The notes under the pieces: model-generated | Databases searched by the model: none | Told to the model about the DNA's origin: nothing | What the model saw: the letters and a program-made list of their open reading frames with translations, nothing else | DNA from: Omphalotus guepiniiformis | Lineage: Eukaryota; Basidiomycota; Agaricomycetes; Agaricales; Omphalotaceae | NCBI GenBank assembly: GCA_028554645.1 | Contig: JAQOOI010000079.1 | Span: forward strand, 186,001 to 250,000 | DNA length: 64,000 nucleotides | Direction of reading: 5' to 3' | In this document: positions 13,777 to 57,358 of the stretch, piece after piece | Layout of the letters: the number at the start of each line of letters is the position of its first letter | Numbering within the stretch: position 1 is the stretch's first letter | Made by a program: the position numbers and the translations under genes

Positions 13777-14145
13777 GGCAAGGGACGACGACAGAGATTT
13801 TGATGGGTGAGATAAAAGAAAAGAGAGATAATATATATTGCAGGCCCATCGTGTGCTTTGATACTGGAAGGTGATAAAATGTGGCCCTGCGCGACTTAGA
13901 CCAGAACCATTAGAGGCCAAAGAGAAGATGCCGAAGCCATGAGAGGGCAAAGAGAAGACAGAGACGGGGAGGACGTTGCATGCCATCGTCTGCAGTGTGC
14001 CAAAGGTGCCGGTGAAAGGTCAAAGAAGAAGATTGAGAGAAGTGGCATTTGCGCGCGACGCGACAATGTGCAGGTCACATGCTGATGCTGACACATACAC
14101 TCTGGACTCGGAGGGGATGACCGTGACTTACCGTGAATCAACGAT
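13777..14145. promoter_or_regulatory. bidirectional promoter region of the DNA transposon
   Basis: About 370 bp separate the start codons of accessory gene 1 (13776, minus) and the transposase (14146, plus). Both must be controlled from here. No decisive TATA box was seen. A TATATATT stretch near 13833 is a candidate for the minus-strand gene. Confidence 0.45.
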
Positions 14146-18545: not shown

Positions 18546-18586
18546 AAGATACAATGTATTTCATTTGGCTATTTGTATAACACACT

Positions 18587-19509
18587 TTATTCACGTTTCT
18601 CATCGGATTCGGTGGTGGTGGGACGAGAAGCTGTGAGATCTTTATGAATGTAACATATCGGCCTAACACAAGGATCCTCGCATTCGGATTCTGACTCAAT
18701 GACAGATTCATCAGAACTGTCTACAAGCCGTCGTGCAAGCTATGAAACGTCGTCAATCAGTATATATATCATATGATATATGAAAGGTAGAGATTCTATA
18801 CCATTCGTTCAAAATCACGAAGCGGTGACGGAGTGATAAAAGGTGAGCAATGAGCCACATTCTCCTCCACATTCTCCTCTGTATTCTTCAGCACTGAACT
18901 ATCTCTTGCCCTGACGATGTGCGCTCGGCTGATACGATCTGGTTCTGAATCCGGGATACTGATAGCTGGAGAGACTGAACGTTGGTAACGGGCACCAGAA
19001 AGTACAGGGCCATTTGCGGAGAAGATCATATTGAAAATCTATAATATCAATGTGAGCGTTATACATACTAAATCCCGAAAAAGTTGATGAAAACTTACAA
19101 TAGGTGCGTTCGAACCCGTCTTCACAGTTACAGACAAGGGCCTCGAAGCCGGCCCACAAAAGATATTAATGCCTTCAGTCGAAGAAAGCTCGATATGCTC
19201 GGAGTCACTGGTCATAGGAAAATGTTCAATATAGGGTCTGAGGAAGGCAATATATAGCTTGAAAATACCTGGTCAAAGCCCAATGGCCTAAGCTAAAACC
19301 TGATGAAAAGTTGGTGTCCTACAGAATGTGGCTGCAGGCTCGAGTGTTGTTACCGTGGTGTGCTGCCAGTTGAGGCCAAATTGACAACAAAGCGCGCGTC
19401 GTGTTGAGGTTTCCCACGGAGTCTCTGGCTGGTCTCGCTCGTATACCTTCGGTGGACCTCTTGGCTTAAACATATCAAATTGATACCTAGTGGTGCGACT
19501 ACTCGACAT
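18587..19509 (-). CDS. accessory gene 2 of the DNA transposon, unknown function
   Basis: A small spliced minus-strand gene, tail to tail with the transposase (stops 41 bp apart). The ATG at 19509 starts MSSSRTTRYQFDMFKPRGPP. Exon blocks then read EHFPMTSDSEHIELSS with NIFCGPASRPLSV, MIFSANGPVLSGARY with SISIP-like and PLRDFERMV, and a last exon ending TASRPTTTESDEKRE with the stop at 18587. Introns at about 19030-19100 and 18735-18800 have good borders. The first one, near 19235-19300, is uncertain. The protein would be about 220 aa, Ser/Glu-rich and probably largely disordered. I do not recognise it. Confidence 0.5.
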
Positions 19510-19576
19510 AGATACAGGAGCTCTCTCTGGTGGCTACATCATTACATTGACTTGCCCTGGATTTTCTTTTGCGGTG

Positions 19577-20677
19577 TAGGAGAAGCTGAGAGCTATCCTA
19601 AACAAGAAATATAACCTGAGTACAAATCTGACCAAAAAGAGATGTATAGGGGTAAAACTTGAAATAAACAGTTACTGTACCTTACTGTGGCTGATAGAAA
19701 CGATGAAGCCTGGTCTAGATAAGCTCTAGAGCTTCTACACAACTCCTAATGCTGCCCTAAGTAGAGGAGAATGTGCCAATTTTGGAGAAACTTATAGGGG
19801 ACCAGATTTGCAATGCACTGAGGAGAATGTCACCTGTCAGGATACTGGTTGCTATTTACAGGTTCTGGACCTTTATTTAGGTACCCTGGGTACGTCCTAA
19901 CACACCTAGAACGCGGACAAAGCGATAAATTTCTGTTTTTATACCAATCTATACCCAAAGTTCCTACATTTTGACTATCTAACTGGAAAATTACCTAGAA
20001 AACTACCTAAAAAGAATCCAATCTCTGCTCAATTGATACTTACTTACTTTTGACTCATTTACTGTTCAGATTACTCTTTTAATTTCGAGATATATGTTTG
20101 ATTTTATGATTTAGTATATATAGCTTACAGAGTATCTATTTAGATTTTCTTAAGCAAGTACTGCCCAAAGCTACAAGCCAAAGCAGGAAAACCTTCTTAG
20201 ACGAAATATAGCCTGGCTCTTTAGAGTTCAGTTCGAGAAATATCCAGTTGTGAAAACTTCTGTAAAGTCCCTTGTGGCAGATAAATTGAAAGAGATACTG
20301 AATCTTTGCTGAAACTGCTGTTCTGTCTGTGCTGAATCTGCCTGCTGAAACTGTCTGTGCTGCATCTGAAACTGTTCCCTGCATTGTCTGACCATTGGAT
20401 CGAGTTTAAACATCGAGATTGATTGTCCTGAATCCCTCCTGAACCCTGAAACCACCCTTACCTTCTGTCTGAATCTTGTGTTTTGAGATACCCTCTGCCA
20501 TTTTTCACCCAGATTGAGATAAAGACATCTGTAACCCTGCAGATTCAAAGTTCAATTGTTGCGTCTAACTGTGCGGAATCTCTGACAACGCCAGTCACAC
20601 CTCACCCTACATCATTTTGATTTGAGTTGGATTGTGCTCATTTGAGTATCTCTCTCGTTCATTTCATAGTCACTACA
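19577..20677 (+). repeat. 5' LTR of element B, second part
   Basis: It resumes the LTR at TAGGAGAAG after the DNA transposon and ends CACTACA at 20677, directly before the primer-binding site. It carries a TATATATAG box near 20114, a CTGAA(A/T)CTG-rich stretch (20290-20470) and the conserved signature at 20571-20594. I noted one base difference from the 3' LTR: C at about 20237 where the other copies have T. Confidence 0.95.
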
Positions 20678-20698
20678 TCTGGAGCCCACCGCGAGGGG
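20678..20698 (+). other. primer-binding site of element B
   Basis: TCTGGAGCCCACCGCGAGGG plus G follows the LTR end. The same 21 bases follow the LTR of element C at 48657. TGGAGCC at two bases from the LTR is the usual place for tRNA annealing. The primer tRNA would end GGGCUCCA, with U before CCA, which is unusual and would fit a Cys-type or similar tRNA. The tRNA is not identified. Confidence 0.75.
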
Positions 20699-20850
20699 TG
20701 GCTTTAGACTTGATAATTGAACTATCTGTGTATTTACACGTGTCTGGAAATAAATCTGGACTTTTTCTGTGTTGAACTTTGCCCTGTTCCTCACTTAGCA
20801 ACAATTTCCTTGAAGTTGTTGAACCATCTATAAGTTTTATAACTTAGAGT

Positions 20851-22749
20851 TTGCTTGTCAAAATTAGCAGCTCACAGAGAAACACACGTCCTAGAAAGAC
20901 TAAGAATTCTGAGAGAGCTGGAACAGAAGAATTGTCACTGAACCAGTCATCCAGAAGGAAAAGTTCCAAAGGAAAAGAGAAAGAAGTCATACCTGAACCA
21001 GCTTCAAGTTCCCTTTCGTCTCTTTCGTCCCTAAGTACGATTCCTGAACGGAATACACCTCCAGATTTATCTGAACTCTCAGCTAGATACAAGAAAAATA
21101 AGAGGAACTTTGTTAACAGTCCTCAATATTTTGCCTTGACACATAAAAGAATCCCTGTTAAAATAATAAGGAACCCGAGAAACAATATGTCTACTCATGA
21201 CAATGCTACTGGGAATGAAGCTCCCCAACAACAAGGACCTACCCAAGGACCTGTTGAGATGGAAGAGATCTTCATTTTTGGAAATGCAACAGGAATGCAG
21301 ATTCCTGTTCCTGCAGCTAAAGAGTTGCAAAATGAGAAACTACCTAAAGTCTCTAAGCAGGCCCCCATCTTCGATAAGAAACATCCATCTGAATTGGTTG
21401 CATGGTTGGCAGAGCTGGAAGGCATCTTTGTGTCAACCGGAACAAAAACAGATGCGGCTAAAGTGATGTTGGCACTCAGATACATGGAGTTCCATACCCG
21501 TGAAGAGTTTCAACGGCTTCAAGCTGTTAAAGATTTGGATTGGGATGCTTTCAAAGAGGCATTAATGAAAAATTTCCCTGAATCTGCAGATAGAGGACTG
21601 GGATCTAGACAAAGATTGTATGCTATCATTGATGCATATAAGCTCATAGTGCTTGGTGCTATTCAGAAACTGATGGCATTTAAAAGGGAGTATGAGATTG
21701 AGTATGAGAAACTATCTTCTGGTACCACACCTGTAGTATCAAACTCAGAAGCTGTAGCTGGTTTCTTGAGTGCACTAGATGAACCCTTCAGAAGGAAACT
21801 TCTGGACCGCTTAGAAAACAAAGTGATCAATGGCCACTTACAAGTTCAGAGAGAGGATGACCCTTTTACTCTGAAAGATGTAATGTCTGAGGCTGAAAAA
21901 CTCTGTTCTGTAAAAAGAGCAGGGGGATACAACTTTGGTTTATTCTTGAATGGTCCAAATCTGGCAGAAGGATACTCTAGGATACTCCCAACAACTGAGC
22001 AGAGTGCTACAAGGAAGTTATATGATCCTTACCAAGTAGCATCTACTGTGAAGTCAGAACCAGATCAGTGGGCAATGAAATTGTCTGCAACAGTGGATAG
22101 TCACCAGAACCAGTTTAACCAGATTAGACAAGCCCAGGAAACGAATCTGGCAGCTCTTGCAAAGCTATCTGAGACAGTTGCTAACTTGGCAAAAATGACC
22201 CAAGCAACTTCTAGCTCAGTTAGGATGAACATGAATGCTCCAAATTCCCAATCTGGACCTGGAATGAACTCTAATGGACACAATAGTGTACAAAGATCGT
22301 CCCAGATGTCATCTGTGAATAATAATACTCATGCTGACTCCAATTGCTATATGTGTGATGAGCCTGGACATAGATCTATGGACTGTCCACATCAACTTAG
22401 ATTTATCAGGTTGGGGTGGATGATCAAGAATAGTGCTGGTAAATGGGCATTGAAAGATGGAGTATATTGGCCAAGAGCTGATCCGTCTGATACTCGGTCT
22501 AAGAAAGAGAAGATTGAGGAAATTGCCAAAAGACATGGATGGGAACAACCTTCCTCTCATGTTGACCAGAACTTGTATGCTTTTGAAGATGAGGATTCGG
22601 CTATAGCAGGTCCCTCTCAAAGTAGTTCATTAGATGCTATCAACAGCCTTGTTGCTCAATTCAGTCAGGTTTGCAATACTTTGCAGAATCTGGCACCAGC
22701 AGCTAAATCTGAAACTAAGCAGATTTTGAAACGAGGAAAACAACTCTGA
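20851..22749 (+). CDS. Gag of element B
   Basis: Structural protein of the element's particle. The open frame runs to TGA at 22747-22749. The part from 20851 has no ATG. The first ATG in frame is at 21187 (MSTHDNATGNEA), so either translation starts at a non-AUG codon or the basic Ser/Lys-rich stretch upstream is not translated; element C has the same arrangement. The capsid region follows, with FDKKHPSELVAWLAELEGIF and LRYMEFHTREEFQRLQ. A single zinc knuckle CYMCDEPGHRSMDC (CX2CX4HX4C) lies at about 22349-22390. The stop is in frame with pro. No inactivating change is seen. Confidence 0.88.
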   Translation: MLVKISSSQRNTRPRKTKNSERAGTEELSLNQSSRRKSSKGKEKEVIPEPASSSLSSLSSLSTIPERNTPPDLSELSARYKKNKRNFVNSPQYFALTHKRIPVKIIRNPRNNMSTHDNATGNEAPQQQGPTQGPVEMEEIFIFGNATGMQIPVPAAKELQNEKLPKVSKQAPIFDKKHPSELVAWLAELEGIFVSTGTKTDAAKVMLALRYMEFHTREEFQRLQAVKDLDWDAFKEALMKNFPESADRGLGSRQRLYAIIDAYKLIVLGAIQKLMAFKREYEIEYEKLSSGTTPVVSNSEAVAGFLSALDEPFRRKLLDRLENKVINGHLQVQREDDPFTLKDVMSEAEKLCSVKRAGGYNFGLFLNGPNLAEGYSRILPTTEQSATRKLYDPYQVASTVKSEPDQWAMKLSATVDSHQNQFNQIRQAQETNLAALAKLSETVANLAKMTQATSSSVRMNMNAPNSQSGPGMNSNGHNSVQRSSQMSSVNNNTHADSNCYMCDEPGHRSMDCPHQLRFIRLGWMIKNSAGKWALKDGVYWPRADPSDTRSKKEKIEEIAKRHGWEQPSSHVDQNLYAFEDEDSAIAGPSQSSSLDAINSLVAQFSQVCNTLQNLAPAAKSETKQILKRGKQL

Positions 22750-22770
22750 GTCGAAAAACTAGAGTTTCCA

Positions 22771-24168
22771 ATGAAGGAGATTGGTGAAGAAGCTGTATAT
22801 ACTCAGAATCCTTCTCACAAAACAGGTCAATCTCCTGAGGAAAATAAACTTGTAAAGAAAAAGAGAGTTGAAGTGTTACTACCTACACTAAGACCATCTG
22901 AAAGGGAGAAATACAGACCCCCTGCTATGAGAAAAGAGCCCGTTCGTTTTGAACTACCCGTTGATTCTGACACTGAGGAGATTGAATCTCCCTCTGAAAA
23001 TAACAACGATGTTGCACGGAGAGTATCTAACCGTCCGTTTGATCATGTAAAGGCAATAGATAGGCCACCTATACCAAAGGGAATGCCTGTAGGGAGCCAG
23101 AATAAGTCAAATGAGACTGAAGGAGCTCAATCTGGAACTAAAGATGGAATGAGTAATGATACAAGGAATGCTATTGTATACACAAAGCCTCCGCGTAAAT
23201 CTGAGCCCGATTTCAAGCTTAGAAACTCACTATTCAAACCGGGTCTAGCAGAAGAAATTGCAGACAAAATCTTTAGATCTGAGATAGATATAAGTAGTGG
23301 GGACCTCATTGCTATATCTCCGGCACTTCAGAAGATTATGCAGAGAAAATTGAAGAACAACAGGGTGTATAAGCGTCCTGTAAAGGCTTTTGTTCATGAA
23401 GTAAGGGATGAAGATGATCCTGATGGTATTCTACCAGAAGAAGATGTCAATCTGGTACAGGCAAATTATATGGTCTTTATTGAAGATATGGCCTATGAAA
23501 GGGAAGATGTGTTTATTGTCCTAGATGAAGACACAGATGACCTTAAGAAAGGCTCAGTGGTACACAAGGATGTTGTGGACCAGTATCAGAAAGATGTACC
23601 TCCAGATGAGAGGAACAAGATCATTATAGTAGCCAGCCAGACTGACAGTCTAAAGGCAATCTACCCAAAGATTAATCACTCTGATCAACAAGTTGAGACA
23701 GTAGTTGATAGTGGTTCTCAAATTGTGTCCATGGATACAAGAGTAGCTATTGGACTTGGTTTAAGATGGGACCCAGAGACTGTGATCCATATGCAAAGTG
23801 CAAATGGTCAATTACAGGCTACTAGGGGACTAGCAAGAAATGTACCATTTACCTTTGGAGAAATAACTATCTATATGCAGATTCACATAATAGATAAAGT
23901 GCCTTATGATGTTCTTTTGGGAAGACCATTTGATGTGTTAACAAGCAGTGTAGTCAGAAACTTTGAAACTGGAGAACAAGAGATCACCATTACAGATCCA
24001 AACAGTGGAATGAAGTGTACAATGGGAACATATGACAGAGGTAGAGGAATTAAGGTTAAACCTATTCCTGGTGAACCAAAGCTTGTCCCTGAAACACAGA
24101 GATCTGCGAGTGTCCCTGTGAAAAATGAGGGAGACTCTCAAAATTTTCATCGGACCTCAATGAACTGA
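22771..24168 (+). CDS. aspartic protease region (Pro) of element B
   Basis: This frame is the same as gag, separated by one UGA at 22747; the ATG at 22771 is seven codons after it. Expression would need stop-codon readthrough or reinitiation. The first 300 residues are a low-complexity, charged linker. The protease has active-site VVDSGSQIVS at about 23704-23733, then RNVPFTFGEI and YDVLLGRPFDVL, the usual substrate-groove and C-terminal blocks of retroviral-type proteases. It processes the polyprotein. The end overlaps the open pol frame, with a slippery heptamer at 24141. Confidence 0.85.
   Translation: MKEIGEEAVYTQNPSHKTGQSPEENKLVKKKRVEVLLPTLRPSEREKYRPPAMRKEPVRFELPVDSDTEEIESPSENNNDVARRVSNRPFDHVKAIDRPPIPKGMPVGSQNKSNETEGAQSGTKDGMSNDTRNAIVYTKPPRKSEPDFKLRNSLFKPGLAEEIADKIFRSEIDISSGDLIAISPALQKIMQRKLKNNRVYKRPVKAFVHEVRDEDDPDGILPEEDVNLVQANYMVFIEDMAYEREDVFIVLDEDTDDLKKGSVVHKDVVDQYQKDVPPDERNKIIIVASQTDSLKAIYPKINHSDQQVETVVDSGSQIVSMDTRVAIGLGLRWDPETVIHMQSANGQLQATRGLARNVPFTFGEITIYMQIHIIDKVPYDVLLGRPFDVLTSSVVRNFETGEQEITITDPNSGMKCTMGTYDRGRGIKVKPIPGEPKLVPETQRSASVPVKNEGDSQNFHRTSMN
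24141..24147 (+). promoter_or_regulatory. candidate -1 frameshift site, element B pro-pol
   Basis: In the pro frame the sequence reads A AAT TTT, a heptamer of the canonical X XXY YYZ type. Slipping back one base joins pro to the pol frame, which is open from 24129, and yields FSSDLNELIRDQGE. At the same place element C gives FSSFEELIPDQGE, so the fusion peptide is conserved. Downstream RNA structure was not evaluated. Confidence 0.75.
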
Positions 24169-24203
24169 TAAGAGATCAGGGAGAGGTAGCTGTTTGTATT
24201 GAA

Positions 24204-27200
24204 ATGGATGAAGATGGCAATGCCACAATTGCTGGATATAAGCTGCCAGACAATGAATTGTTTTCAGAACCTGAAAAGGCTGAGGCATTTGTGTTTGCAG
24301 CTGAATCCATCATAAGAGAAAACGATATAGCGGCTGCAGATTCGGTTAGATCGTATTTAAATCGGTCTGTAGACTCAGAAAAGAAACAAGTGTTCTGTAC
24401 CTGGCGAGAAAATTTAAATTTGAATTCAAAAGAGCACTTAGATACTCAGAATTCAGACTTAGATACTTGCACGGTACTTAATCACACTTCGGAACCCGCA
24501 TCTGGAACTGAAAAGAGGATGAATAAGGGTAAAACGGTCAAAAGAGAACCGAAACCAGTCCAATCTTCAAGACCCAGATGGAGTAGAGATAAGAATGGCA
24601 ACAAAATGGCCAGATTGGTGACTGTTTTGGCTTCTAGAAAGTACAAACCAGTTGCTATTAAGGTCAAACCTGTTAAAGCTACCTTACCTGCGGAGTTCCG
24701 GATTGAAAGAAAAATAATTGGAGATCCGTTAAAAGATATGCCTGAGTTACCTACTCATCCTCCAGATTTCACTCCTGGTGAGAGGTACTCTCAAGAAAGA
24801 AAAGAAATTGTAGACAAGAATCATAATGAAGGTTTCTTATGGCCTGAAGAAATGAAACTTGTACACCATCTTATGAAAGTCCAAGAAAAAGCATTTGCAT
24901 GGGAAGCATCTGAAGGAGGAACCTTTAATACAGAGTTCTTTCCTCCAGTAAAGTTTCCAGTGTTACCACACACTCCTTGGGTAGAAAGGAATATTCCTAT
25001 ACCTCCAGGGATCTATGATCAAGTGTGTAAAATGATTAAGGACAAAATAGATGCTGGTGTATATGAGCCTTCTAGTTCATCCTATAGATCCAGATGGTTC
25101 TGTGTCTTAAAGAAAGATGGGAAAAGCTTAAGATTGGTCCATAGTTTAGAACCACTCAATAAAGTGACTATTCAACATTCAGGAATTCCTCCTGCAACTG
25201 CAGATATAGCTAGAAGCTTCTCTGGAAGAGCATGTTTGGGTTTACTGGATATCTTTGTTGGGTATGATGAGAGGCTGGTTGATGAAAGTTCAAGAGATCT
25301 TACCACCTTCCAAACACCTTTTGGCCCACATAGATTAGTGAAGTTACCTATGGGTTGGACAAACTCTGTCCCTATCTATCATGATGATGTTACATATATC
25401 TTCAGAGATGAAATTCCACATGTAACTAAACCTTACATTGATGATGTACCAGTAAAAGGGCCTGTCAGCAGATATGAAACTGCAGATGGAGGTTATGAAA
25501 CTATCCCTGAAAATTCTGGCATCAGAAGATTTGTGTGGGAGCATCTGCAGAATATGAACAGAATTGTGCAAAGAATGAAACATGCTGGTGGTACCTTTGC
25601 AGGGACCAAAGCTTTCATCTGTGTAGCTGAAGGTGATGTTGTTGGACATCATGTCAGTTATGAAGGAGAAAAGCCAGTGGAAAGGCTAGCTGAAGTTGTC
25701 CTGACTTGTGATGCATCAAAATGGTCTGAGAAGAAAGATATCCGGTCATTTTTGGGCACTGCTGGTCAGATGAGGATGTTCATAAAGGATTATGCCAAGA
25801 AAGCAAAACCTTTGACAATCTTAACTGGAGATGTGCCTTTTCAAATGGGTCCTGCAGAACTGGAAGCTGTAGAAATGATTAAAGATGGGATTAGGAATGC
25901 TCCAGCACTCCGTCCTATTGACTATGATTTAAGTACTGGAATCACCCTTTCAGTAGATACTTCCTGGATGGCAGTAGGTTTCCAACTATATCAGAGAGAC
26001 CCTGCAGATTCAAAGAAAAAGTTCTACAACTGGATGGGTTCCATTACTTTAAATGAAAGAGAAGCAAGGTTTTCTCAACCCAAGAGAGAACTATATGGCT
26101 TGATGTTGGCCTTACAACAAACATATTACCAGACATATGGATGTAGGGATCTTACTGTGGAAACAGATGCAAGCTATATTAAAGGAATGCTTGACAAACC
26201 CAGTAGTGGTCCCAATGCAACTATAAACAGATGGATTGAAGAAATAAGGAAGTTCCACTTCACCTTGGTACACATCAAGGGCACTGAACATAAGGGACCA
26301 GATGGACTATCTAGACCACCTAGAGGAACCATACCAACTGAAAGAGCGGCATCTAGAGATCCGGATTCATTTGTTGATGAAGATGATGGTCTGCCGGTGA
26401 AATTCAGAATGGGAGATGGTGAATCTGAGGTACCCTTTGATTTTGAAGCCTTTAAAGATGAAATAGATACACGAGGTGGTTACTTGCAGGAAGTGGCAAA
26501 GTCAATAGACGACTTTGAGGACGATTTGCAAGAAGCTCTTGAAGAAGAACGTCACTTGAATTCCATTAGAGAGCTGTTAGCAATTCAACATCCAGTATCT
26601 AACTCGATGTTGCAGTTTGCACAGACCTTGGTTATACCTGAAGGAGGTACTGAATGGAAACATGAACACCCGTATAGAGAGGATCACAGATCTGCATCTA
26701 CAAAGGAACTGGATGAACAACTCGACCTAATCAAAGATTGGTACCTGCAGGGCAATCAGCCTCTAGCTCACCTAGGTGAGACTGCTATGAAAAAGTTCAT
26801 TTCCAGGGCTGTAAAGTTCTTTGTAGACAGAGATGGTAGACTCTATAGAAGGAATGATGATACAGGAGGCCAGCATAGACTGGTTGTGCCTAAAGAGAAA
26901 AGGATGTACATGATGCATGCTGCTCATGACCATCTGGGACATAAAGGAATGTTTGCAACAAAAGCTCTCATAGAGAAGCGTTTTTGGTGGCCAGATTTGA
27001 ATGGAGATGTCAATTGGTTTGTCAAATCCTGCCAAATCTGCCAGAACCGAAAATTAGAATTGTTGAAGATTCCTCCCACTCTTACACACACTCCCTCCCT
27101 GTTTCAGAAGATTCATGTGGATGTATTTAAAGTATCACCTCCAAGTAATGGTTGCAAGGATGTTGTACATGGCAGATGTGCACTCTCATCCTGGTCTGAA

Positions 27201-28247
27201 GGAAGAGCCTTAAGATCTGACAATGCTAGATCATTGGGGGAATGGTTCTTTGATGATATTATATGCAGATGGGGATGTCCGGATGAAGTAGTAACTGATA
27301 ATGCACCCCAGATGCGAGCTATGCTTAAATGGCTAGAAGATAAATATGGAATTAAAGGAATTACTATATCTCCTTACAATTCCCAAGCAAATGGCAAGAT
27401 TGAGAGAGCCCACTTTGACATTAGAACTGCCTTGGCAAAAGCTACAGGTGGAGATCTAAAGAGATGGTGGTGGTTCCTCAAACATGTCTTCTGGGCAGAT
27501 AGAATTACAGCTAGAAAAGGACTTGGATGTTCACCATACTTCCTTGTTACTGGAGCTGAACCTATCCTACCCTTGGATATTGTTGAATCTACATGGTTAG
27601 TAAAACTTCCAGATAGAATCTTGACATATGAGGAACTTATTGGCTATAGGGCACAAGCTCTAGCTAAGCATAGAACCCATGTGCAGGAAATGATATCTAG
27701 AATTAATACAACCAAGAAAGAGACTCTTAGACAATATGAAGAAGAATACAGAAATGTTATCAGAGATTTTGATTTCAAACCTGGTACACTTATACAAGTC
27801 AGAAATACACAAGTTGAGAAGAACTTGGACAGAAAAATGTATCCTAGATACCTGGGACCCATGATTGTAATAAGGAGAACCAAAGGGGGATCCTACATTG
27901 TGGCCCAGATGGATGGCACAGTACTCAGAGAAAAGGTTGCTGCCTTCAGAGTACTACCCCATGTAGCTCGATATGAACCAATTGAACTGCCTGAGAACAT
28001 TCATGAACTTATAGACTTGACTAGTGAACAGCTAGAAGAGATGGTCAATGATAACAATGAGTTGGACCCTGAACTTGAGAGAGATTACATCTTTGACAGT
28101 ATTCCTCAACTGAGAATTCCTGCTGAAGATGAAGATCTTGATGAGTCCAGTGATGAAGAACTACAATCTGCAAACGATGCAGATGAAGAAGAACCAAATT
28201 GGGATGCTCCAGTCCTGACTAGGTCTCAATCTTCACAAAATAAATGA
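24204..28247 (+). CDS. Pol of element B: RT, RNase H, integrase
   Basis: The frame is open from 24129 and the first ATG is 24204; it is probably made as a Pro-Pol fusion by -1 frameshift. RT blocks: SYRSRWFCVLKKDGKSLRLV, then GLLDIFVGYDER, LPMGWTNS and PYIDDVPVKG with the catalytic Asp pair. About 30 extra residues (YETADGGYETIPENSG) follow this motif, as in C. RNase H: LSVDTSW, FSQPKRELYGLM, VETDASY and GPDGLSR. Integrase: HAAHDHLGH and CQICQ zinc residues, then HVDVF, VTDNAPQ and NGKIERAH carrying the D, D and E. A GPY/F-like segment (PRYLGPMIVIRR) and an acidic tail end the protein. I see no chromodomain. The frame is intact over 1347 codons. Confidence 0.93.
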   Translation: MDEDGNATIAGYKLPDNELFSEPEKAEAFVFAAESIIRENDIAAADSVRSYLNRSVDSEKKQVFCTWRENLNLNSKEHLDTQNSDLDTCTVLNHTSEPASGTEKRMNKGKTVKREPKPVQSSRPRWSRDKNGNKMARLVTVLASRKYKPVAIKVKPVKATLPAEFRIERKIIGDPLKDMPELPTHPPDFTPGERYSQERKEIVDKNHNEGFLWPEEMKLVHHLMKVQEKAFAWEASEGGTFNTEFFPPVKFPVLPHTPWVERNIPIPPGIYDQVCKMIKDKIDAGVYEPSSSSYRSRWFCVLKKDGKSLRLVHSLEPLNKVTIQHSGIPPATADIARSFSGRACLGLLDIFVGYDERLVDESSRDLTTFQTPFGPHRLVKLPMGWTNSVPIYHDDVTYIFRDEIPHVTKPYIDDVPVKGPVSRYETADGGYETIPENSGIRRFVWEHLQNMNRIVQRMKHAGGTFAGTKAFICVAEGDVVGHHVSYEGEKPVERLAEVVLTCDASKWSEKKDIRSFLGTAGQMRMFIKDYAKKAKPLTILTGDVPFQMGPAELEAVEMIKDGIRNAPALRPIDYDLSTGITLSVDTSWMAVGFQLYQRDPADSKKKFYNWMGSITLNEREARFSQPKRELYGLMLALQQTYYQTYGCRDLTVETDASYIKGMLDKPSSGPNATINRWIEEIRKFHFTLVHIKGTEHKGPDGLSRPPRGTIPTERAASRDPDSFVDEDDGLPVKFRMGDGESEVPFDFEAFKDEIDTRGGYLQEVAKSIDDFEDDLQEALEEERHLNSIRELLAIQHPVSNSMLQFAQTLVIPEGGTEWKHEHPYREDHRSASTKELDEQLDLIKDWYLQGNQPLAHLGETAMKKFISRAVKFFVDRDGRLYRRNDDTGGQHRLVVPKEKRMYMMHAAHDHLGHKGMFATKALIEKRFWWPDLNGDVNWFVKSCQICQNRKLELLKIPPTLTHTPSLFQKIHVDVFKVSPPSNGCKDVVHGRCALSSWSEGRALRSDNARSLGEWFFDDIICRWGCPDEVVTDNAPQMRAMLKWLEDKYGIKGITISPYNSQANGKIERAHFDIRTALAKATGGDLKRWWWFLKHVFWADRITARKGLGCSPYFLVTGAEPILPLDIVESTWLVKLPDRILTYEELIGYRAQALAKHRTHVQEMISRINTTKKETLRQYEEEYRNVIRDFDFKPGTLIQVRNTQVEKNLDRKMYPRYLGPMIVIRRTKGGSYIVAQMDGTVLREKVAAFRVLPHVARYEPIELPENIHELIDLTSEQLEEMVNDNNELDPELERDYIFDSIPQLRIPAEDEDLDESSDEELQSANDADEEEPNWDAPVLTRSQSSQNK

Positions 28248-28449
28248 TAAACACACTATATTTGAACAAAGTACGAGATAGACACTGAAAAAGTGACTAT
28301 CTAGTTGCAGATGAAAGTAAAAAGTGGGTAACAGTAGTTTGCACTACTAAGATAAACATAAAGGGTGTTTGAGGATGTCCTATACGATGTACCAATACCG
28401 TGTAAACTGCCCATAAATGATACTGAGATGTCCAGATGTAACATTAAAG

Positions 28450-29843
28450 TCAGAGAATGTCTGCAGATGGAAATGCATGGAAAGGAGCTGGATCATCAGC
28501 AGTACCTGGACCAGACTCCAAGGGACTCTGGTTGGCCCTGTAAGCCTTCTCCTTCTGTCTTCGGAGCAATTCCAGACGGGAAAACTCCTTGTAGGCAAAT
28601 CTGTACTGAGAATGATGATACTGAATGGCATGTTGATGAACACTGAGTTCTGTCTTCAAGAAGTTGGAAATTGATTGAAGAACCTCAGGAGAGAAGTGGT
28701 CCAAGTCCATGAAAGGGAACAGAGCAGTGATACGAGTCACAATCTCTTCTCCACTCTCCCGGAGTTTGCGCTCATCTGCAGGATAATTGAGTTAGAAACT
28801 CGAAAAACCGCAGATTGGGTGACTACTCACGGTCTGTCTCCTCTCTAAGGTTGACGATTGGGTTCTCAATACGAGGCTTCTTCATGACAATCACCTTGTG
28901 GGGCTCAGGAATAGGTTCATTCTGCAAGAACATTTATGATCAGTACATGGAACTACTTGAGCAACTCCAGATGGAACTAAAAACTTACATCTTTGGGTCC
29001 AACTGAGGTGGCCTGTAAAAGTGACCATGGTACATCAGTCTAGAGAAACGAATGAACAGTTCTGAACATAAATCTGCTTACCCTTGGAGAAGTAATTACT
29101 ACTTTTTCCTTGGAAGACTTATGAACTGTGGTAGTAGTGGGAGAACCTTTGGTTTTGTCCTTGCTAGAGTCCTTGTTATCCTTATTGGGAGCGTGGATCG
29201 ACGCAGAAAGCCCAAGGGAAGGTCCATCTGCCATCTAAGAAAAGAAAGACCATGTTGAGATTTGAGTTAGGTACTCAGGAGTTAGATACTTACAGTAACG
29301 TCTCCGTCACCAGTAATGACCTCAATCTCTTCATCGTCATCATCGTCATCCTCAATAAGTTCGGGAGTTTTAGCTGGCTACACACCGATAGGCAGTTAGA
29401 TACTCGAAATGAGAGGGATGGTCAATAAAAACGTACTTTGCGCTTCTTAGATCCGCTGAGAGTCTCTCTGCGCTTTGCCAAGTCGTCCCGGAAAGCTTTA
29501 ATGGCGGAGAAAGTGTCAGGTTCACCTACAGATGGAAACTTTTTGACTGCATCTGCGACCAGATTGACACCTTTGTCGAACAAAGTGAACGCTTCCTCGG
29601 ACTTAGCAACTGCATATGCAGGCAGAGACTTCTTCTGTAATAAGAAATCAAGTTAGATACTGGACCTGGAATCAAAGATTGAACATTTACAAGATGACTA
29701 GCAAGGGCTGTAATAAGCATCCCAAGCAGTTCAGTATCCGCATCTTTGGCCTCCATGGCTCCAGTAGCTCGAGAAAGATATCGCTGCGTTGTGGCAACCC
29801 ACTCAGGACGCTCAGGCCAAGTCTTGGGACCTTTAGGGGCCAT
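28450..29843 (-). CDS. antisense gene 2 of element B, 342 aa, 7 exons
   Basis: A spliced gene on the strand opposite to gag-pol; its stop lies 200 bp from the end of pol. Exons, in transcription order, are 29843-29691, 29634-29437, 29377-29294, 29234-29082, 29012-28989, 28921-28831 and 28775-28450, with GT-AG introns. They sum to 343 codons in frame. The N-terminus (MAPKGPKTWPERPEWV) is predicted helical. Next come an acidic run (LIEDDDDDDEEIEVI), a Lys/Ser/Thr-rich linker and VIVMKKPRIENP, a possible nuclear signal. The C-terminal region looks helical (EVLQSISNFLKTELS, FSRLELLRRQKEK). Introns contain the TTAGATACT motif of the LTR. No family is recognised. The copy in B' starts identically as far as it runs. 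Confidence 0.8.
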
Positions 29844-29937
29844 AACTGTAAAATATAGAGATAAAGAAATGATAAAAGTGGAAGGGATGTAGAACCAAGT
29901 AATAGATGGTGCTGAGTCGTTCTGAATCTGCGCTGCA

Positions 29938-29946
29938 CCTTTTATA
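29938..29946 (-). promoter_or_regulatory. TATA box of antisense gene 2, element B
   Basis: On the minus strand it reads TATAAAAGG, 95 bp before the start codon. Element C has the same nine bases, preceded by a similar ACCAG or CTGG context, 38 bp before the start of its antisense gene. The copy in B' is at 63501-63509. Confidence 0.7.
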
Positions 29947-30037
29947 TCTGGTCTACCCCGTCTAAATCTGCACGTTGGTCATTACTCCTATGCTGTTCAA
30001 ACAGGCACAATGAGGCCTAGCCAGCGTAGCAGATTGA

Positions 30038-30078
30038 TCAACGGGGACGTTGAAGTTAATTTTACTTGGGGGGAGAGA
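30038..30078 (+). other. internal hairpin and polypurine tract, element B
   Basis: TCAACG-GGGA-CGTTGA forms a perfect six-base-pair stem with a GGGA (GNRA-type) loop at 30038-30053. ATTTTACTT and a purine run GGGGGGAGAGA follow at 30068-30078. This resembles the terminal arrangement directly before the 3' LTR (33483-33516), where the stem sequence differs but pairs and the loop is the same. Confidence 0.75.
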
Positions 30079-30683
30079 GCACACAAAGTTGACAAGGCCA
30101 AAATTTTGAATTTTTGAAATTTCAAATATCTCAAATCTGGAGATCTAGACAGCTTTGACCGCAGAGGACTTAGCCGAATAGCATTGCCGAGTAACCGAGA
30201 GCTCTCAACCTTGACAGAAAGGACTTATTAAATTCAATGTATCCTCAAAAAGAAACGATACTTATTGAAAATTGTGGGCTTAAGTCATTTAAAGAATTGT
30301 TTCCCTCTAGAATCGAGTTAGATACTCAACTTGAAGGAGACGCTCAATATGATTTCTTATGTTTCACACCAGATTCATGCCAAGAAAAATGAAATATGTA
30401 TTTTTGAGCATAGAAGCTCAGGACTATAATAAGAGATACTTCGACCTATACTACTATAAAGTAAGTACAGGGAGTATCTACAGAAAAAGCGATGTATAAA
30501 ATTTTTATATATTTGGGCAACCTGGTGTGTTGAACACCAGAGTTACCCGCGACGAGATGCGAACGGATACGGCAGGTCCCAGCCAAGCGAAGAAAGCGAC
30601 AGATCTGTGAGATTGGGACTGAGAGATGGAGAAAGTAAAGGGAAAAAGGGGTACGAACTATGCGTGCACCCGAGCCTTGAAAG

Positions 30684-33212
30684 TCACTCTGAGAGGGGAT
30701 CGTCCCTCCCAGCTAGTGGACTGCTTTCTGGCACCAGTACCTTGCCGGCTGTCTCCTCCTCCAGCTCGTCTTCCTTGTCTTCGTCCTCTTCGACCGTGAC
30801 TTGCGAAGCACCGACCGCCTGAGGCGATTCGTCGATGTCAGCTGTAGCAACGGGAGTGGAACGGATATTGGAAGGACCGGGCTGCGGCTCGACCTCTGGA
30901 TCCACCACGATGAAATGACCTGCTTCGTTCCTAGCGATGTAGCTGGCCCGAGACACCAGGTTGATGTCCCATCCAAGCGCGGTAGCCAGTAGTTTGAGCT
31001 GTTCGTCCGAATAGTCGAACGTCGGGTCGCCAGTCTGAACCTGATGTAAAACAAGACGAGGATCGCGACACGAAGCTTTGATATGATCTTGACGCTGCAA
31101 AACCGTTCGGTGTACCCGTTCCATCGCCCGCATCTGCGCGGAGACGCTGTTCTGCATGTCCTCGTAGGTGTCGATAAGAATCTGCAACTGCTCAGCTTCC
31201 TGAGAGACAACTAAGAAACGAAGAACCTTTAATAAAAGATGTCTAAAGAAATGAAAGGAATACTTACCTGTACTGCCGCTGCGAGCCAATGTGTATGAAA
31301 GGCATCGCAACTGATCGCTGCCTTCCAAACCGTACGACCAGCTACAGGTATGATTGTCCTTCGCGCAAGTCGCGCAGCGCCATTCGAAAGTCTTGCTGTT
31401 GAACTGAGGACGGCATTCTCTACCTTCAGTGTGAGTACCGCCGACGCAGGCAGCACAAATGGAGTCGCCGAAGAACTAAAAGAGTGACGAAAAGAAAATT
31501 TAGCGGGTATTAATCTCGAGTCAGAAAGATACTCACCCTATCGAATGTGCGGTTGACTGAAACGAGTTGCTGTAAAGTAACAGGACGGCCATAAGGCCAT
31601 CCAAAGACAACACGGCCTGTAAAAGAACCGTTAAACAAACACTAGAAAAATGAAATAAAAGAGATACTTACCGGGTATCGCTTCAAAGTCCTCCTTCGCA
31701 CGATTTTGAGGTGTTCGTCCATCCGATCGCTAAGGAAAGACATTGTCAGTAAAAGGAAATGAAATAAAAAGAAATGACAAGACTTACTTGAAGATTTGGG
31801 GCCTCGTAACGAGTGCCCGGAGCAAGAGAAACAGAAGAAGTAGAGAAATCAGCGCGAGAAGCCCATAGAGGTGCCTCGAAGTCGACGTTAAGATTGACTG
31901 GGGCTTTAGTACCCTCAGTCTTGACTGCTTTCTCATCTTCCTTCTTCTCCTCTTCCTCGTCGCTGGATGCAGGAACAGTAATTGAAGTCGCCTTGGAGCG
32001 AGTCTTTCGAGACGCTGGTTCATCGGCAGGCTCTTCTACCCGCATCTTCCGAATCTTCGGTTTTGGCTTGACCACCTGTTTACCCTTGCCCTGTGTAAGA
32101 AAACATGAGAAAAGAATAAATAAATCTATAAGGAAACGTACCTTTGAAGCTGCAGCTGCAGGCTTCTTACCCTCAGAAACGCGAGACTTCTTGACCGGAG
32201 GCTCAGAGTTCTCGGACTCGAAGTCAGTATCATCGTCGTCGTCGTCGGTCAGCTCAGTAGATTCGGCCGTGGCTTCAACGTCGGAGATCTTGTGTTTCAT
32301 CTAAAAATGATAAAATAAGAAGGACCTCTTCAAACAAAAAGAAAAGACATACCGAACGACCCGGTAAGGGCGTTACACTAGTCTTGGCCTTTGGCTTTGG
32401 CTTTGGCTTTGGTTTTGAAACCGGTGCCGAAACCTTCGAAGATTCAGCGCGAGCAACCTTGGCGGACGAAGCAAGTGTGGCGAGAGGCGGGAGTAAGATC
32501 TCATCGTCGTCGTTGTCTTCCTCGAGCTGCGGAGTTTGCTTAAGCTTAGGAAATGGAGGTAGTGGTTCCCACAAATTGCGAAGCTGTAAAGAGTTAGCAA
32601 AAGAAATGAAAACCAGTCTGAGAGATACTTACTGTATACTTGAGGCAGAAAGAATCAAGTTTAGCGCGATTTAGCCCCCAGGGCGGCACAATAAATGAAG
32701 TCGGTTTGGCCTGATGAAGCCATAAAGCGAGATTGCATACAGAAAGAAAAGAACCGGTAAAATAGTCGGGGAGATGTGTATGTGCTCGCTGGGAGCGATT
32801 GAAAGTCAAAGCAACGCGAGTCTGTCAAGATGAGGTTAGCTATAACGAAGATGAAAAGAAATGATGCCTACCAAGGCGAGATTCAAATCGTCGAAAGCGG
32901 ATGTAATGGTCCTCAACCTAAGACCCTTTCCAAACTCCTTGAACGATTGGTCCCGTAGACGTCGGTCCAAGTCGCCTAGCCTTGAAACGATGGCGGAAAG
33001 AGCCTTGTAATCCTCTTCGTTCATGTCTGAGAGCTGTGAGAGGGAAAAGAAAAGAAAGAGGCCGTCAATTGAGAGCGGTTCTCGAATATATATGTGACAC
33101 ACTGTGAAAAGCAGCGCGTGAGAGAAAGGAATTAAAAAGGACTTACCGGTACCTCGGAAGGCTCCCTACTGAGAGTGATAGAGGAAGCCAATTGCCTTGA
33201 AAAGTCATCCAT
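30684..33212 (-). CDS. antisense gene 1 of element B, 660 aa, 10 exons, Zn2Cys6-like
   Basis: A spliced gene on the strand opposite to gag-pol, starting about 300 bp inside the 3' LTR. With GT-AG introns of about 50-113 nt the ten exons sum to 661 codons in frame; exact borders are given for the B' copy at 60235-62763. The N-terminal half has a helical region (NEEDYKALSAIVSRLGDLDRR). Next come Lys-Pro repeats, acidic runs (LTDDDDDDTDFESENSE) and PPVKKSRVSEGKK, a possible nuclear signal. A cysteine cluster CX2CX10CX12CX2CX6C follows, close to fungal Zn2Cys6 DNA-binding domains except for the longer first loop. A coiled-coil-like region (EAEQLQILIDTYEDMQNSV) and an acidic C-terminus end it. A DNA-binding regulator is plausible but inferred. 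Confidence 0.82.
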
Positions 33213-33482
33213 CGGGGGACGAAGTGAGATGTGAAGAGAAAACGAGAATCACTGTCTGTTTAAGTCGAAACTTCGACAGAAGTAGATTGCGGGTTTCGCC
33301 GAAGTCTGACATTGCCGTCACATGCCGATGTAAATGTATTGACTGGCGATCAATCGAGAAAAGTTTTGCCTGAAGGCAGTCCGTGAGACGTGATATTGTG
33401 ATATTGAACAGTACGAAATGTGCTTCTATGACAAATCTGCTAGTAATAATTGTATCTAACTCGATTTTGGCCAATCTGGTAC

Positions 33483-33516
33483 GATCGGGGACGATCATAT
33501 TTTACTTTGGGGGAGA
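33483..33516 (+). other. terminal hairpin and polypurine tract of element B
   Basis: GATCG-GGGA-CGATC forms a five-base-pair stem with the GGGA loop (33483-33496). ATTTTACTTT and the tract GGGGGAGA (33509-33516) follow, ending directly at the 3' LTR. The tract is the expected primer for plus-strand DNA synthesis. On the opposite strand this segment lies upstream of antisense gene 1. Confidence 0.85.
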
Positions 33517-35360
33517 TGTTGCGTCAAAAAGCCTTTCAGTACTGAAATCTATCAGATTGAAGTAAATATGGAATGTTCAAGCATTGGAAACTGAACATAA
33601 AGGACTAGAGTCACCCCAGACTGCTAGTTAAGACATGAAACATACTTGTACTCACAATACCTAAGTGTAGTGTTTGCTACAGTACTGAATCTGGTACTAA
33701 GCAACTGTGACCAATGGGTTATACAAAGAGATACTAGTTATGCCTCTCCAGATGTGTTGGAATTCCAATGTTCCATACCAGATTGAGTTGGTCAGACCCA
33801 CCCTCTAATAACTAGAGACTCTACCAAGTGTTGTTGACTGTAATCCAAGGGGTTGATGGATTTTCACTTCAATTGAACAACTATCTAAGTCCTTTGGACT
33901 GATCAAAAGTTCCAGCTGGTCTTGCTAACTAAGTTGGCACTATAAGATTGAATGCTGAGAATATGGGCAATCTTGAAGATTGTATTACCAGAGAAATATT
34001 GTACATTGAGTACTATGTGGATATAATGTCACTGAGATGAAATGCCAATCTGTGTAATAAGGGAAGTAGATTCAAAAGTTACATCTGCACAAATGAGTTA
34101 GATACTCAATACTCATGCTGGAAGGAGTTAGATACTGAAAATGAGTATCTCTCTGGATCTGAGTATCTCTCTGAAATTCAGTAACCCTCTGAACTTGATG
34201 AAAGACAAAGGCGCTCTAATTGGAGGTCTTGGACGAAACTATGGGATAGAATACTGTCCTAGGAGAAGCTGAGAGCTATCCTAAACAAGAAATATAACCT
34301 GAGTACAAATCTGACCAAAAAGAGATGTATAGGGGTAAAACTTGAAATAAACAGTTACTGTACCTTACTGTGGCTGATAGAAACGATGAAGCCTGGTCTA
34401 GATAAGCTCTAGAGCTTCTACACAACTCCTAATGCTGCCCTAAGTAGAGGAGAATGTGCCAATTTTGGAGAAACTTATAGGGGACCAGATTTGCAATGCA
34501 CTGAGGAGAATGTCACCTGTCAGGATACTGGTTGCTATTTACAGGTTCTGGACCTTTATTTAGGTACCCTGGGTACGTCCTAACACACCTAGAACGCGGA
34601 CAAAGCGATAAATTTCTGTTTTTATACCAATCTATACCCAAAGTTCCTACATTTTGACTATCTAACTGGAAAATTACCTAGAAAACTACCTAAAAAGAAT
34701 CCAATCTCTGCTCAATTGATACTTACTTACTTTTGACTCATTTACTGTTCAGATTACTCTTTTAATTTCGAGATATATGTTTGATTTTATGATTTAGTAT
34801 ATATAGCTTACAGAGTATCTATTTAGATTTTCTTAAGCAAGTACTGCCCAAAGCTACAAGCCAAAGCAGGAAAACCTTCTTAGACGAAATATAGCCTGGC
34901 TCTTTAGAGTTCAGTTTGAGAAATATCCAGTTGTGAAAACTTCTGTAAAGTCCCTTGTGGCAGATAAATTGAAAGAGATACTGAATCTTTGCTGAAACTG
35001 CTGTTCTGTCTGTGCTGAATCTGCCTGCTGAAACTGTCTGTGCTGCATCTGAAACTGTTCCCTGCATTGTCTGACCATTGGATCGAGTTTAAACATCGAG
35101 ATTGATTGTCCTGAATCCCTCCTGAACCCTGAAACCACCCTTACCTTCTGTCTGAATCTTGTGTTTTGAGATACCCTCTGCCATTTTTCACCCAGATTGA
35201 GATAAAGACATCTGTAACCCTGCAGATTCAAAGTTCAATTGTTGCGTCTAACTGTGCGGAATCTCTGACAACGCCAGTCACACCTCACCCTACATCATTT
35301 TGATTTGAGTTGGATTGTGCTCATTTGAGTATCTCTCTCGTTCATTTCATAGTCACTACA
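33517..35360 (+). repeat. 3' LTR of element B
   Basis: 1844 bp, from TGTTGCG to CACTACA. It is uninterrupted and shows the empty site of the DNA transposon at 34258-34263. The TATATATAG box lies near 34798 and the conserved LTR signature at 35254-35277. Near-identity with the 5' LTR indicates recent transposition. Confidence 0.97.
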
Positions 35361-35934
35361 ACGCTCCTCAAATCCAGATACCCGTTATCGCTTTATTTGT
35401 GCTACTGTTGATTCTGGAGTGTCTCGACTAGCATCTATGACCTCATTTCCTCCTGGTGCTTCCTCCACAGTCAACAAATATGTTTGACAGGTGAACGTGA
35501 CTCTGAGTCATATTCAAGATGTGGTTTGTTGTGCTGACACAGTGAATGCTTCAATTATTGATAAGAAGGATCTCGTTACAGCATTTGATACTGTGGGTTA
35601 TCGAAATAGTTCCATGTTTCCTCCTGTCAAACATCTGGCAGTTTTTGTTCAAGTCCCGGGTCATGCTTCTTCTCATTTATTTGCACCCTTTGAAGGCGAT
35701 ATAATGCCTTGTCACCGTCCTCAATTCCCTTCTTTGGCCGATGCCATCGACTTGACCGGACTTGGTGCAGATGAAGAAGAAGATGCCGATGACAATGAAG
35801 GTGCAGATGAAGATACTGATGTGGTTGCGCCTGCTGCTGGTCCTTCGATGAGTCGCAAGCGATTGGTCAATGAACGCGATGGGGATGATGATGTTGTGAT
35901 AGTGTTGCCCATAAAAAAGCCTCGATTCGAGTAG
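35361..35934 (+). pseudogene. antisense gene remnant of element D
   Basis: A coding-like stretch on the strand opposite to D's pol, converging on it (stops 140 bp apart). The frame reads from RFICATVDSGVSRLAS through one in-frame TGA near 35488 to DVVCCADTVNASIIDKKDLV, then an acidic run (GADEEEDADDNEGADEDTD) and a basic C-terminal end LPIKKPRFE. The 5' part is lost at the LTR of B. The position and the acidic-plus-KKPR composition match the antisense genes of B and C. The basic end also resembles VIVMKKPRIE of B antisense gene 2. No family is recognised. Confidence 0.55.
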
Positions 35935-50507: not shown

Positions 50508-50515
50508 GTTCGAGG

Positions 50516-57321: not shown

Positions 57322-57358
57322 AAGTAAATCCGATAGGAAGAACTTAGGGTTTGGAGGG

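What the first reader, a model, noticed from the sequence alone, without database searches (positions are those of the whole stretch)
28450..33212. Spliced antisense genes between pol and the 3' LTR, a plan shared by three Ty3 elements
B carries two multi-exon genes (660 and 342 codons) on the strand opposite to gag-pol. C has a 383-codon gene and the last exon of a second one in the same place (55884-58066). D, a chromodomain element, has a remnant in the same position (35361-35934). In all three the nearest antisense stop lies 140-220 bp from the end of pol. The exon sums are in frame and both B copies are intact. Antisense ORFs exist in some plant Ty3 elements, but I know of no described family of spliced antisense regulators in fungal Ty3 elements.
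Basis: partly seen in the sequence, partly recalled or inferred. Interest (0 to 1): 0.9.

Follow-up and report, generated by a model that had tools for sequence, protein, structure and literature searches.

The report
Spliced antisense genes in fungal retrotransposons
Several families of LTR retrotransposons in this fungal genome carry, on the strand opposite to their replication genes, intron-containing genes that selection has kept as proteins, probably nuclear regulators of the element; antisense genes in such elements are known from plants and from Botrytis, but this paired, many-intron, zinc-cluster-like form looks new.

Summary
Element B has two antisense genes behind pol: g1 (10 exons, 660 aa) and g2 (7 exons, 342 aa). 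In a subfamily whose exons are only 63% (g1) and 74% (g2) identical, all 15 introns keep place and GT..AG; usable dN/dS values against B are 0.11-0.15. Sixty of 62 B-type pol tails have g2 antisense behind them. Two further families (pol tails 62 and 65% identical to B) carry homologues of both genes. C has two antisense genes in the same slots, and two chromodomain-like families have one each; these are not detectably homologous to B's, so the slot is shared, not the protein. D is a weak fragment. Distal genes (B, B', E1, E2, C) share a six-cysteine pattern like fungal Zn2Cys6 regulators, but below Pfam's cut-off; g1 and g2 flank a second, hairpin-bearing polypurine tract. Most likely they are element-encoded nuclear regulators made from antisense promoters; transcription, splicing and function are inferred, not shown. 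Antisense accessory ORFs are known already (plant Grande, RIRE2, Retand; fungal Boty brtn), so this is a new variant of a known kind. The chromodomain-like family most frequent in my listing shows no such gene in the 3 kb scanned.

The parts
11127..35360 (+). Ty3 element B, copy 1; 5' LTR (11127-11871 + 19577-20677) split by a 7.7-kb DNA transposon (11872-19576); 3' LTR 33517-35360
   Evidence: self-comparison; junctions
20851..28247 (+). B gag (20851-22749), protease ORF (22771-24168), RT-RNaseH-integrase ORF (24204-28247)
   Evidence: ORFs; Pfam zinc knuckle (below its cut-off), Asp_protease_2, RT_RNaseH, Integrase_H2C2
30684..33212 (-). antisense gene g1, 10 exons: 33212-33147, 33033-32872, 32821-32633, 32583-32353, 32300-32142, 32090-31788, 31729-31672, 31616-31537, 31475-31268, 31210-30684; 660 aa; six-Cys motif at residues 423-460; helix-rich stretch, acidic and NLS-like runs judged by eye
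   Evidence: intron conservation; dN/dS; motif
28450..29843 (-). antisense gene g2, 7 exons: 29843-29691, 29634-29437, 29377-29294, 29234-29082, 29012-28989, 28921-28831, 28775-28450; 342 aa; last exon modelled with one long helix
   Evidence: outside homologue P0121, 59% identical over the last exon
29941..29946 (-). TATAAA 103 bp upstream of the g2 start codon
   Evidence: background 8 of 232 ATGs
30038..30079 (+). inner hairpin (TCAACG-GGGA-CGTTGA), T-rich stretch and polypurine tract between g1 and g2
   Evidence: covariation
33483..33516 (+). 3' hairpin (GATCG-GGGA-CGATC) and polypurine tract directly before the 3' LTR
   Evidence: covariation
60235..62763 (+). g1 of B copy 2 (element on the minus strand), intact, one aa different
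63604..64000 (+). start of g2 of B copy 2, continues beyond the window
48744..55665 (+). element C gag, protease and pol ORFs
   Evidence: Pfam on pol
55884..57321 (-). C proximal antisense gene, exons 57321-57181, 57126-56860, 56805-56671, 56607-56521, 56465-56442, 56378-56243, 56182-55884; 362 aa; TATAAA 46 bp before the ATG
   Evidence: dN/dS
57783..58066 (-). last exon of the C distal antisense gene; the rest lies beyond the junction with B copy 2; a complete copy in L027 is modelled as 598 aa with a six-Cys motif
35542..35934 (+). D: antisense open-frame fragment 141 bp from the end of D pol; weak support

Best explanation
The region between pol and the 3' LTR of these Ty3 elements holds accessory genes that serve the element itself. 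They are transcribed from their own promoters on the antisense strand, spliced, and translated into nuclear proteins: a distal six-cysteine (Zn2Cys6-like) protein with acidic, NLS-like and helical stretches (g1), and a smaller acidic, NLS-bearing, helical protein (g2). Being antisense to the genomic RNA, their introns are not introns in that RNA and so survive reverse transcription; this is why an RNA-copied element can keep genes with nine and six introns. The proteins most likely act in trans on the element's own expression or chromatin state (activation, repression or anti-silencing), as HBZ does for HTLV-1. Shown: gene structure, selection on protein, antisense position, presence next to nearly all pol tails counted. 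Inferred: transcription, splicing, nuclear location, DNA binding, regulation.
For: Frames close over 10 and 7 exons. Against subfamily copies L029 and L030, 15 of 15 introns keep GT..AG in each; exon length changes are multiples of three except one in L030 g1 exon 8 and +1 at the g2 end, while 7 of 15 (L029) and 10 of 15 (L030) introns change by other lengths; exon identity 0.63/0.74 versus intron interiors 0.52/0.56. dN/dS: g1 0.15 (L028), 0.11 (L029); g2 0.11, 0.14, 0.13; C gene 0.06, 0.21; CH gene 0.11-0.15 between subfamilies; L020 gene 0.17. Association: g2 60 of 61 hits antisense 163-457 bp behind a pol tail, 60 of 62 pol tails with g2; C 31/34 and 31/33; CH 12/13 both ways; L020 22/26 and 22/27; none on the same strand. 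E1 and E2 carry homologues of both genes (hhalign 97.0-99.8). Six-Cys motif: 0 of 20000 shuffles for each of four proteins. TATAAA upstream in 5 of 9 gene types looked at against 8 of 232 ATGs.
Against: No transcript or protein data. Pfam's Zn_clus does not reach its cut-off in any element protein tested (E 5.2 for C, 0.37 for E1, not listed for B, B', E2); the PDB sequence search found nothing for g1. No TATAAA in B g1, E1 g1, E1 g2, E2 g1, nor in CH copies L011 and L018. L029 g1 has an internal stop and L030 g1 a frameshift; L029 against L030 gives 0.49 for g1 (frameshift included) and the L030 comparison with B is unusable; CH L010 against L011 gives 0.43 on very few changes. Several dS values exceed 1 and are near saturation. 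Five loci of a frequent chromodomain-like family show no such gene, so it is not needed for Ty3 transposition in general.
Confidence: 0.6

Rival explanations
1. The proteins are real and useful to the element, but act in replication, particle assembly, nuclear import or integration-site choice rather than in regulating expression.
For: Helical and NLS-like stretches fit nuclear import or an integration cofactor; B and C pol show no chromodomain match at E<=1, so targeting could come from another protein. The conserved second polypurine tract beside g2 ties this region to replication.
Against: A protein made from the antisense strand of an integrated copy is made only after integration, which fits a regulator of resident copies better than a particle part; the zinc-cluster-like motif is typical of regulators (recalled).
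Confidence: 0.25
2. Antisense transcription itself (interference or double-stranded RNA) is what matters; the open frames are incidental.
For: Such roles are discussed for other elements (PMC7264820).
Against: Low dN/dS, frame-keeping exon indels and conserved splice sites point to selection on protein.
Confidence: 0.04
3. Captured host genes carried as passengers.
For: The L020-family gene has relatives in gene arrays near contig ends, one with a Pfam Zn_clus domain, so a host origin is possible for that family.
Against: Present behind most pol tails of each family counted, homologous across four subfamilies, purifying selection between copies. The listed own-genome hits of g1, g2, C and CH genes lie mostly beside pol tails; the lists are cut and I did not examine each unplaced hit.
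Confidence: 0.06
4. Gene-model artefact: chance antisense open frames.
For: My gene finder is home-made and chains short exons in noise; a looser first run produced long false models.
Against: In the tightened run shuffles reach at most 18 while the B, C, CH and L020 genes score 27-73; the conservation tests do not depend on the finder.
Confidence: 0.02

Closest known systems
Antisense additional ORFs (aORF-3R) of plant Ty3 elements: Grande gene23, RIRE2, Retand TRP28 (PMC7264820, PMC11963269)
   Different: No Pfam match to such a domain here; here two genes with nine and six introns, six-Cys motif, internal polypurine tract, fungal host
brtn of Boty-like elements, Botrytis cinerea (Zhao et al. 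2011, Virology 417:248; seen only as mentions in PMC8365987, PMC4227169 and PMC7264820)
   Same: Antisense extra gene in a fungal Ty3 element
   Different: Cannot be compared: paper not held; whether it is spliced is unknown to me
HBZ of HTLV-1 (passages of PMC10186651)
   Same: Spliced antisense gene, nuclear regulator of the provirus
   Different: bZIP protein with promoter in the 3' LTR; here no bZIP match, zinc-cluster-like motif, TATA boxes inside the element
Fungal Zn2Cys6 regulators (Pfam PF00172)
   Same: Cysteine spacing C-x2-C-x6..10-C-x8..12-C-x2-C-x6..7-C followed by a helix-rich stretch (by eye)
   Different: Below Pfam cut-off in all element proteins tested

Membership tests
antisense additional ORF of LTR retrotransposons (aORF-3R) | lies between pol and 3' LTR, antisense to gag-pol | tested here: met
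antisense additional ORF of LTR retrotransposons (aORF-3R) | present in most copies of the family and conserved as protein | tested here: met
   one search counts; dN/dS
antisense additional ORF of LTR retrotransposons (aORF-3R) | transcribed from its own promoter | not testable with these tools
   only TATAAA motifs
Retand TRP28 / transposase 28 | TRP28 domain | tested here: not met
   no such Pfam match at E<=1
Boty brtn | sequence homology to BRTN | not tested
   paper not held
Zn2Cys6 (PF00172) | six cysteines with the cluster's spacing | tested here: met
   B, B', E1 and C distal proteins, 0 of 20000 shuffles each; E2 read by eye; B and B' have 10 residues in the first gap against a canonical 6 (recalled); MAFFT lines up five of the six cysteines as invariant over seven rows
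Zn2Cys6 (PF00172) | Pfam model over its cut-off | tested here: not met
   met only in a homologue of the L020 gene outside the elements (29.7 bits)
HBZ-type retroviral antisense regulator | bZIP domain | tested here: not met
HBZ-type retroviral antisense regulator | modulates the provirus from the antisense strand | not testable with these tools
   no functional data
Ty3/Metaviridae | LTRs, gag, protease, then RT-RNaseH before H2C2 integrase | tested here: met
   (zinc knuckle 17.7 bits, below its 20.8 cut-off; the RT model PF00078 was not listed)

The most novel reading that the evidence does not exclude
Fungal Ty3 elements have a general antisense regulator slot behind pol that is filled again and again by unrelated, intron-rich nuclear proteins, in part recruited from zinc-cluster genes that lie in arrays near contig ends, and exchanged as a cassette between elements whose pol is nearly identical, much as temperate phages exchange immunity regions; in the B/E lineage the slot also contains a second, hairpin-marked polypurine tract that starts plus-strand synthesis internally.
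Probability: 0.22. Interest if true: 0.85.

Novelty: new variant of a known kind. Interest (0 to 1): 0.66.

Why it matters
It would extend antisense accessory genes, which the papers I saw report mainly for plants, retroviruses and one fungal family, to a whole set of fungal Ty3 families in one genome, with proteins of a regulator-like type. It gives a simple reason why such genes sit on the antisense strand: only there can introns survive an RNA-copied life cycle. And because subfamilies at several distances, matched pol backbones with different antisense cassettes, and a family with nearly identical LTRs exist in one genome, the open question of what antisense genes do for LTR retrotransposons becomes testable in a tractable fungus.

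Tried and rejected
Protein search with whole g1 in 5.8 billion proteins: none of 7998 candidates scored. This is weak evidence: low-complexity words probably filled the candidate list, and spliced genes are not predicted as one protein in metagenomes; a control with B pol gave 1371 proteins, one named Lentinula edodes, and a search with the g2 last exon gave one hit among 11 candidates. Viral contigs and genome contigs held no relatives by this tool. One antisense protein family across B, C, D and chromodomain-like elements: no detectable homology. Co-variation of antisense gene and LTR in L017/L018: not supported, a downstream 1.3-kb block is 90% identical while the antisense proteins are 63% identical; I did not delimit that family's LTR. 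CH models with two extra introns in the last exon were dropped because the frame is open through them in all five copies looked at. Structure: g2 last exon only, long helix 29-81, mean pLDDT 74.8, pTM 0.40, two-row alignment; no fold search was made. The first gene-finder settings were too lax and were tightened; L025's antisense signal there is another element's pol and was not counted as an accessory gene; L015's score of 14 exceeds its shuffles (6) but was not counted either. On rechecking, the probability of the novel reading was lowered from 0.25 to 0.22, because telomere repeats were seen at only one of five contig ends near the gene arrays.
Full report
WHAT WAS CHECKED. The window is C78:186001-250000 of an unnamed 42.5-Mb assembly; that it is a fungus, probably a mushroom-forming one, rests on intron style and on a Lentinula edodes protein among the B pol relatives. 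B copy 1 is an LTR element whose 5' LTR is split by a DNA transposon; the 5' and 3' LTR pieces are 99.9-100% identical, so I infer a recent insertion. Behind pol (stop at 28247) two genes lie on the other strand.

ARE THEY GENES? Strand asymmetry is strong (150 versus 21), but the decisive tests are comparative. Two loci of a diverged subfamily B' (L029, L030) were aligned to B. All 15 introns, projected from B, begin GT and end AG in both copies. Exon lengths change by multiples of three except +1 in L030 g1 exon 8 and +1 at the g2 end; 7 of 15 introns in L029 and 10 of 15 in L030 change by lengths not divisible by three. Exon identity is 0.63 (g1) and 0.74 (g2), intron interiors 0.52 and 0.56. 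Nei-Gojobori dN/dS against B: g1 0.15 (L028, bootstrap 0.07-0.29) and 0.11 (L029, 0.00-0.19); g2 0.11 (0.00-0.40), 0.14 and 0.13. Against this: L030 g1 is frameshifted, so its comparison with B is unusable and L029 against L030 gives 0.49; L029 g1 has one internal stop. dS above 1 is near saturation, but B against L028 (dS 0.05 and 0.03) gives the same answer.

HOW WIDESPREAD. Twenty Ty3 loci picked from the integrase search (150 of 352 candidates scored) were fetched and scanned over 3 kb behind pol. Antisense genes stand out in 11 of 20: L009-L011, L017, L018 (family CH, one 4-exon gene), L020-L022 (one 4-exon, 428-aa gene), L027 (C), L028 (B), and L016, whose gene later proved to be of the E1 type. 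L025's signal is another pol. Eight of 20 show none: L012-L015 and L019 (one chromodomain-like family, the most frequent open-frame sizes in the listing), L023, L024, L026 (L015 scores 14 against shuffles of at most 6). 'Chromodomain-like' is judged by eye; I ran no domain search on those pols.

Genome-wide counts (from the lists, several of which are capped, so these are lower bounds). g2 last exon: 60 of 61 hits antisense 163-457 bp behind a B/B' pol tail, and 60 of 62 pol tails with g2 (two second pieces of already counted pol tails left out). C: 31 of 34 and 31 of 33. CH: 12 of 13 both ways, integrase hits being all those whose profile match runs 2- or 3-59. L020: 22 of 26 and 22 of 27, integrase hits being all those running 4-59; I left out three partial gene matches, two of which lie behind pol tails counted here as lacking it. 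g1: 38 of 45 within 6 kb; three of the seven misses have a g2 on the same strand 17-18 kb away with an E-type pol tail between them, as after a nested insertion. No hit lay on the same strand as pol. Two more families, E1 (L040, L042) and E2 (L041), whose pol tails are 65 and 62% identical to B, carry homologues of both g1 and g2 in the same order. A metagenome protein, P0121, is 59% identical to the g2 last exon; it appears to read from the exon-6 motif through an intron-like stretch into exon 7.

ONE FAMILY OR ONE SLOT? Profile comparison links B g1 with E1/E2 g1 and B g2 with E1/E2 g2 (97.0-99.8), but nothing between these and the C, CH, L020 or D proteins; the best other value is 12.6, C distal against the L016 gene, at the cysteine cluster. 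So the families share position, orientation, introns and general make-up (acidic runs, NLS-like runs, helical stretches, judged by eye), not demonstrable ancestry. An integrase tree of 18 rows, without E1 and E2, does not settle whether the trait arose once: one origin is compatible but weakly supported (52/88; 55% of bootstrap trees). Stop-to-pol gaps are 99-218 bp in B, C, D, CH, L020, E1 and E2.

WHAT THE PROTEINS LOOK LIKE. The distal gene of B, B', E1, E2 and C has six cysteines spaced C-x2-C-x6..10-C-x8..12-C-x2-C-x6..7-C; C's 598-aa protein has only these six. The pattern occurs in 0 of 20000 shuffles of each of the four proteins tested (B, B', E1, C); E2 was read by eye. The spacing resembles the fungal Zn2Cys6 cluster (recalled), but Pfam's model stays below cut-off in every element protein tested, and other weak Pfam matches, such as Rep_fac-A_C at 0.014 for B, are below cut-off too. 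The L020-family antisense protein, which lacks the cluster, has homologues in arrays near contig ends (C4, C15, C1, C13, and C78:96-464 beside CCCCTAA repeats); telomere repeats were seen at one of the five ends looked at. One array member has a Zn_clus domain over cut-off, roughly where the antisense protein has one lone cysteine. No Ty3 pol matched in the two array stretches fetched. This hints at a host source for one family; the direction of transfer is unknown. AlphaFold on the g2 last exon gives a long helix, 29-81.

PROMOTERS AND REPLICATION SIGNALS. TATAAA lies 46-111 bp upstream of the ATG in 5 of 9 gene types looked at: B g2, C proximal, CH (L017; L010 if the ATG 93 nt further upstream is used; not L011 or L018), L020, E2 g2; not in B g1, E1 g1, E1 g2, E2 g1 (background 8 of 232 ATGs). 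B' and the C distal gene were not examined. Between g1 and g2, and again just before the 3' LTR, stands a short hairpin with a GGGA-type loop, a T-rich stretch and a polypurine tract ending GGGGGAGA. Left out: the 3' copies of B' (hairpin shifted or imperfect) and C (3-nt loop). The B' inner stem has one mismatch. About 10% of random 45-mers hold a stem of five or more. C has no inner copy by the patterns searched in L027. The inner copy may be a second start of plus-strand synthesis, a promoter element of g2, or a relic of an older 3' end.

CASSETTE EXCHANGE. L017 and L018 have pol tails with dS 0.09 but antisense last exons with dS 1.7 and dN/dS 0.15; identity falls from 0.94-1.0 in pol to 0.62-0.65 from 300 bp behind the pol stop. 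L020 and L022 show the same more mildly (0.065 versus 0.30). Recombination between element lineages explains this better than fast evolution, because dN/dS is low.

MECHANISM. Best supported: accessory nuclear proteins made from the antisense strand of integrated copies. Antisense introns are not introns in the genomic RNA, so they survive; this follows from established reverse-transcription biology. That the proteins regulate expression is inference from the motif, NLS-like runs and helices, and from analogy to HBZ (passages of PMC10186651) and to the nuclear Grande protein (PMC7264820).

KNOWN OR NEW. Antisense extra ORFs are reviewed for plants (PMC7264820, parts 1 and 2 of 3 read; PMC11963269, abstract, background and discussion read), with one fungal case, brtn of Boty (mentions only; the original is not held). 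My searches for antisense genes in fungal or basidiomycete LTR elements (listings and abstract beginnings seen) showed no description of spliced antisense gene pairs or zinc-cluster-like products; they cover only the open-licence library.

Noticed in passing
window 11872-19576: A 7.7-kb DNA transposon (CACCG ends, TA target duplication, transposase-like ORFs that look Plavaka-like from memory) sits inside the 5' LTR of B copy 1.
   Followed up: partly
window 11117-11126 and 35361-35370: B copy 1 shows no clear target-site duplication; its left neighbour is truncated element A, its right neighbour truncated element D, suggesting recombination between copies.
   Followed up: no
L017 and L018 (C19:338986-348900, C59:34700-44660): Nearly identical pol tails with strongly diverged antisense genes: cassette exchange between Ty3 elements.
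   Followed up: partly
L032, L033; C1, C13, C78:96-464: Gene arrays near contig ends, one match next to telomere repeats, homologous to the L020-family antisense gene; one member has a Pfam Zn_clus domain.
   Followed up: partly
L034 (C49:73500-78500): 385-aa ORF homologous to D's antisense fragment, with a six-cysteine ORF upstream on the same strand (no Zn_clus match), about 4 kb from the contig end; no telomere repeat there.
   Followed up: partly
window 37822-39557: Minus-strand LTR relic, pieces 71-79% identical to the B LTR, inside or next to element D.
   Followed up: no
window 24204-28247 and 51718-55665: B and C pol match RNase H and H2C2 integrase models but not the general RT model (PF00078) at E<=1, and the RT motif reads YIDD; gag, protease and pol are separate ORFs.
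   Followed up: no
L009-L011 beyond 2.8 kb, L017/L018 beyond 4.2 kb: Long, variable 3' region followed by a conserved block with internal repeats of about 100-250 bp; LTR limits of this family not worked out.
   Followed up: no
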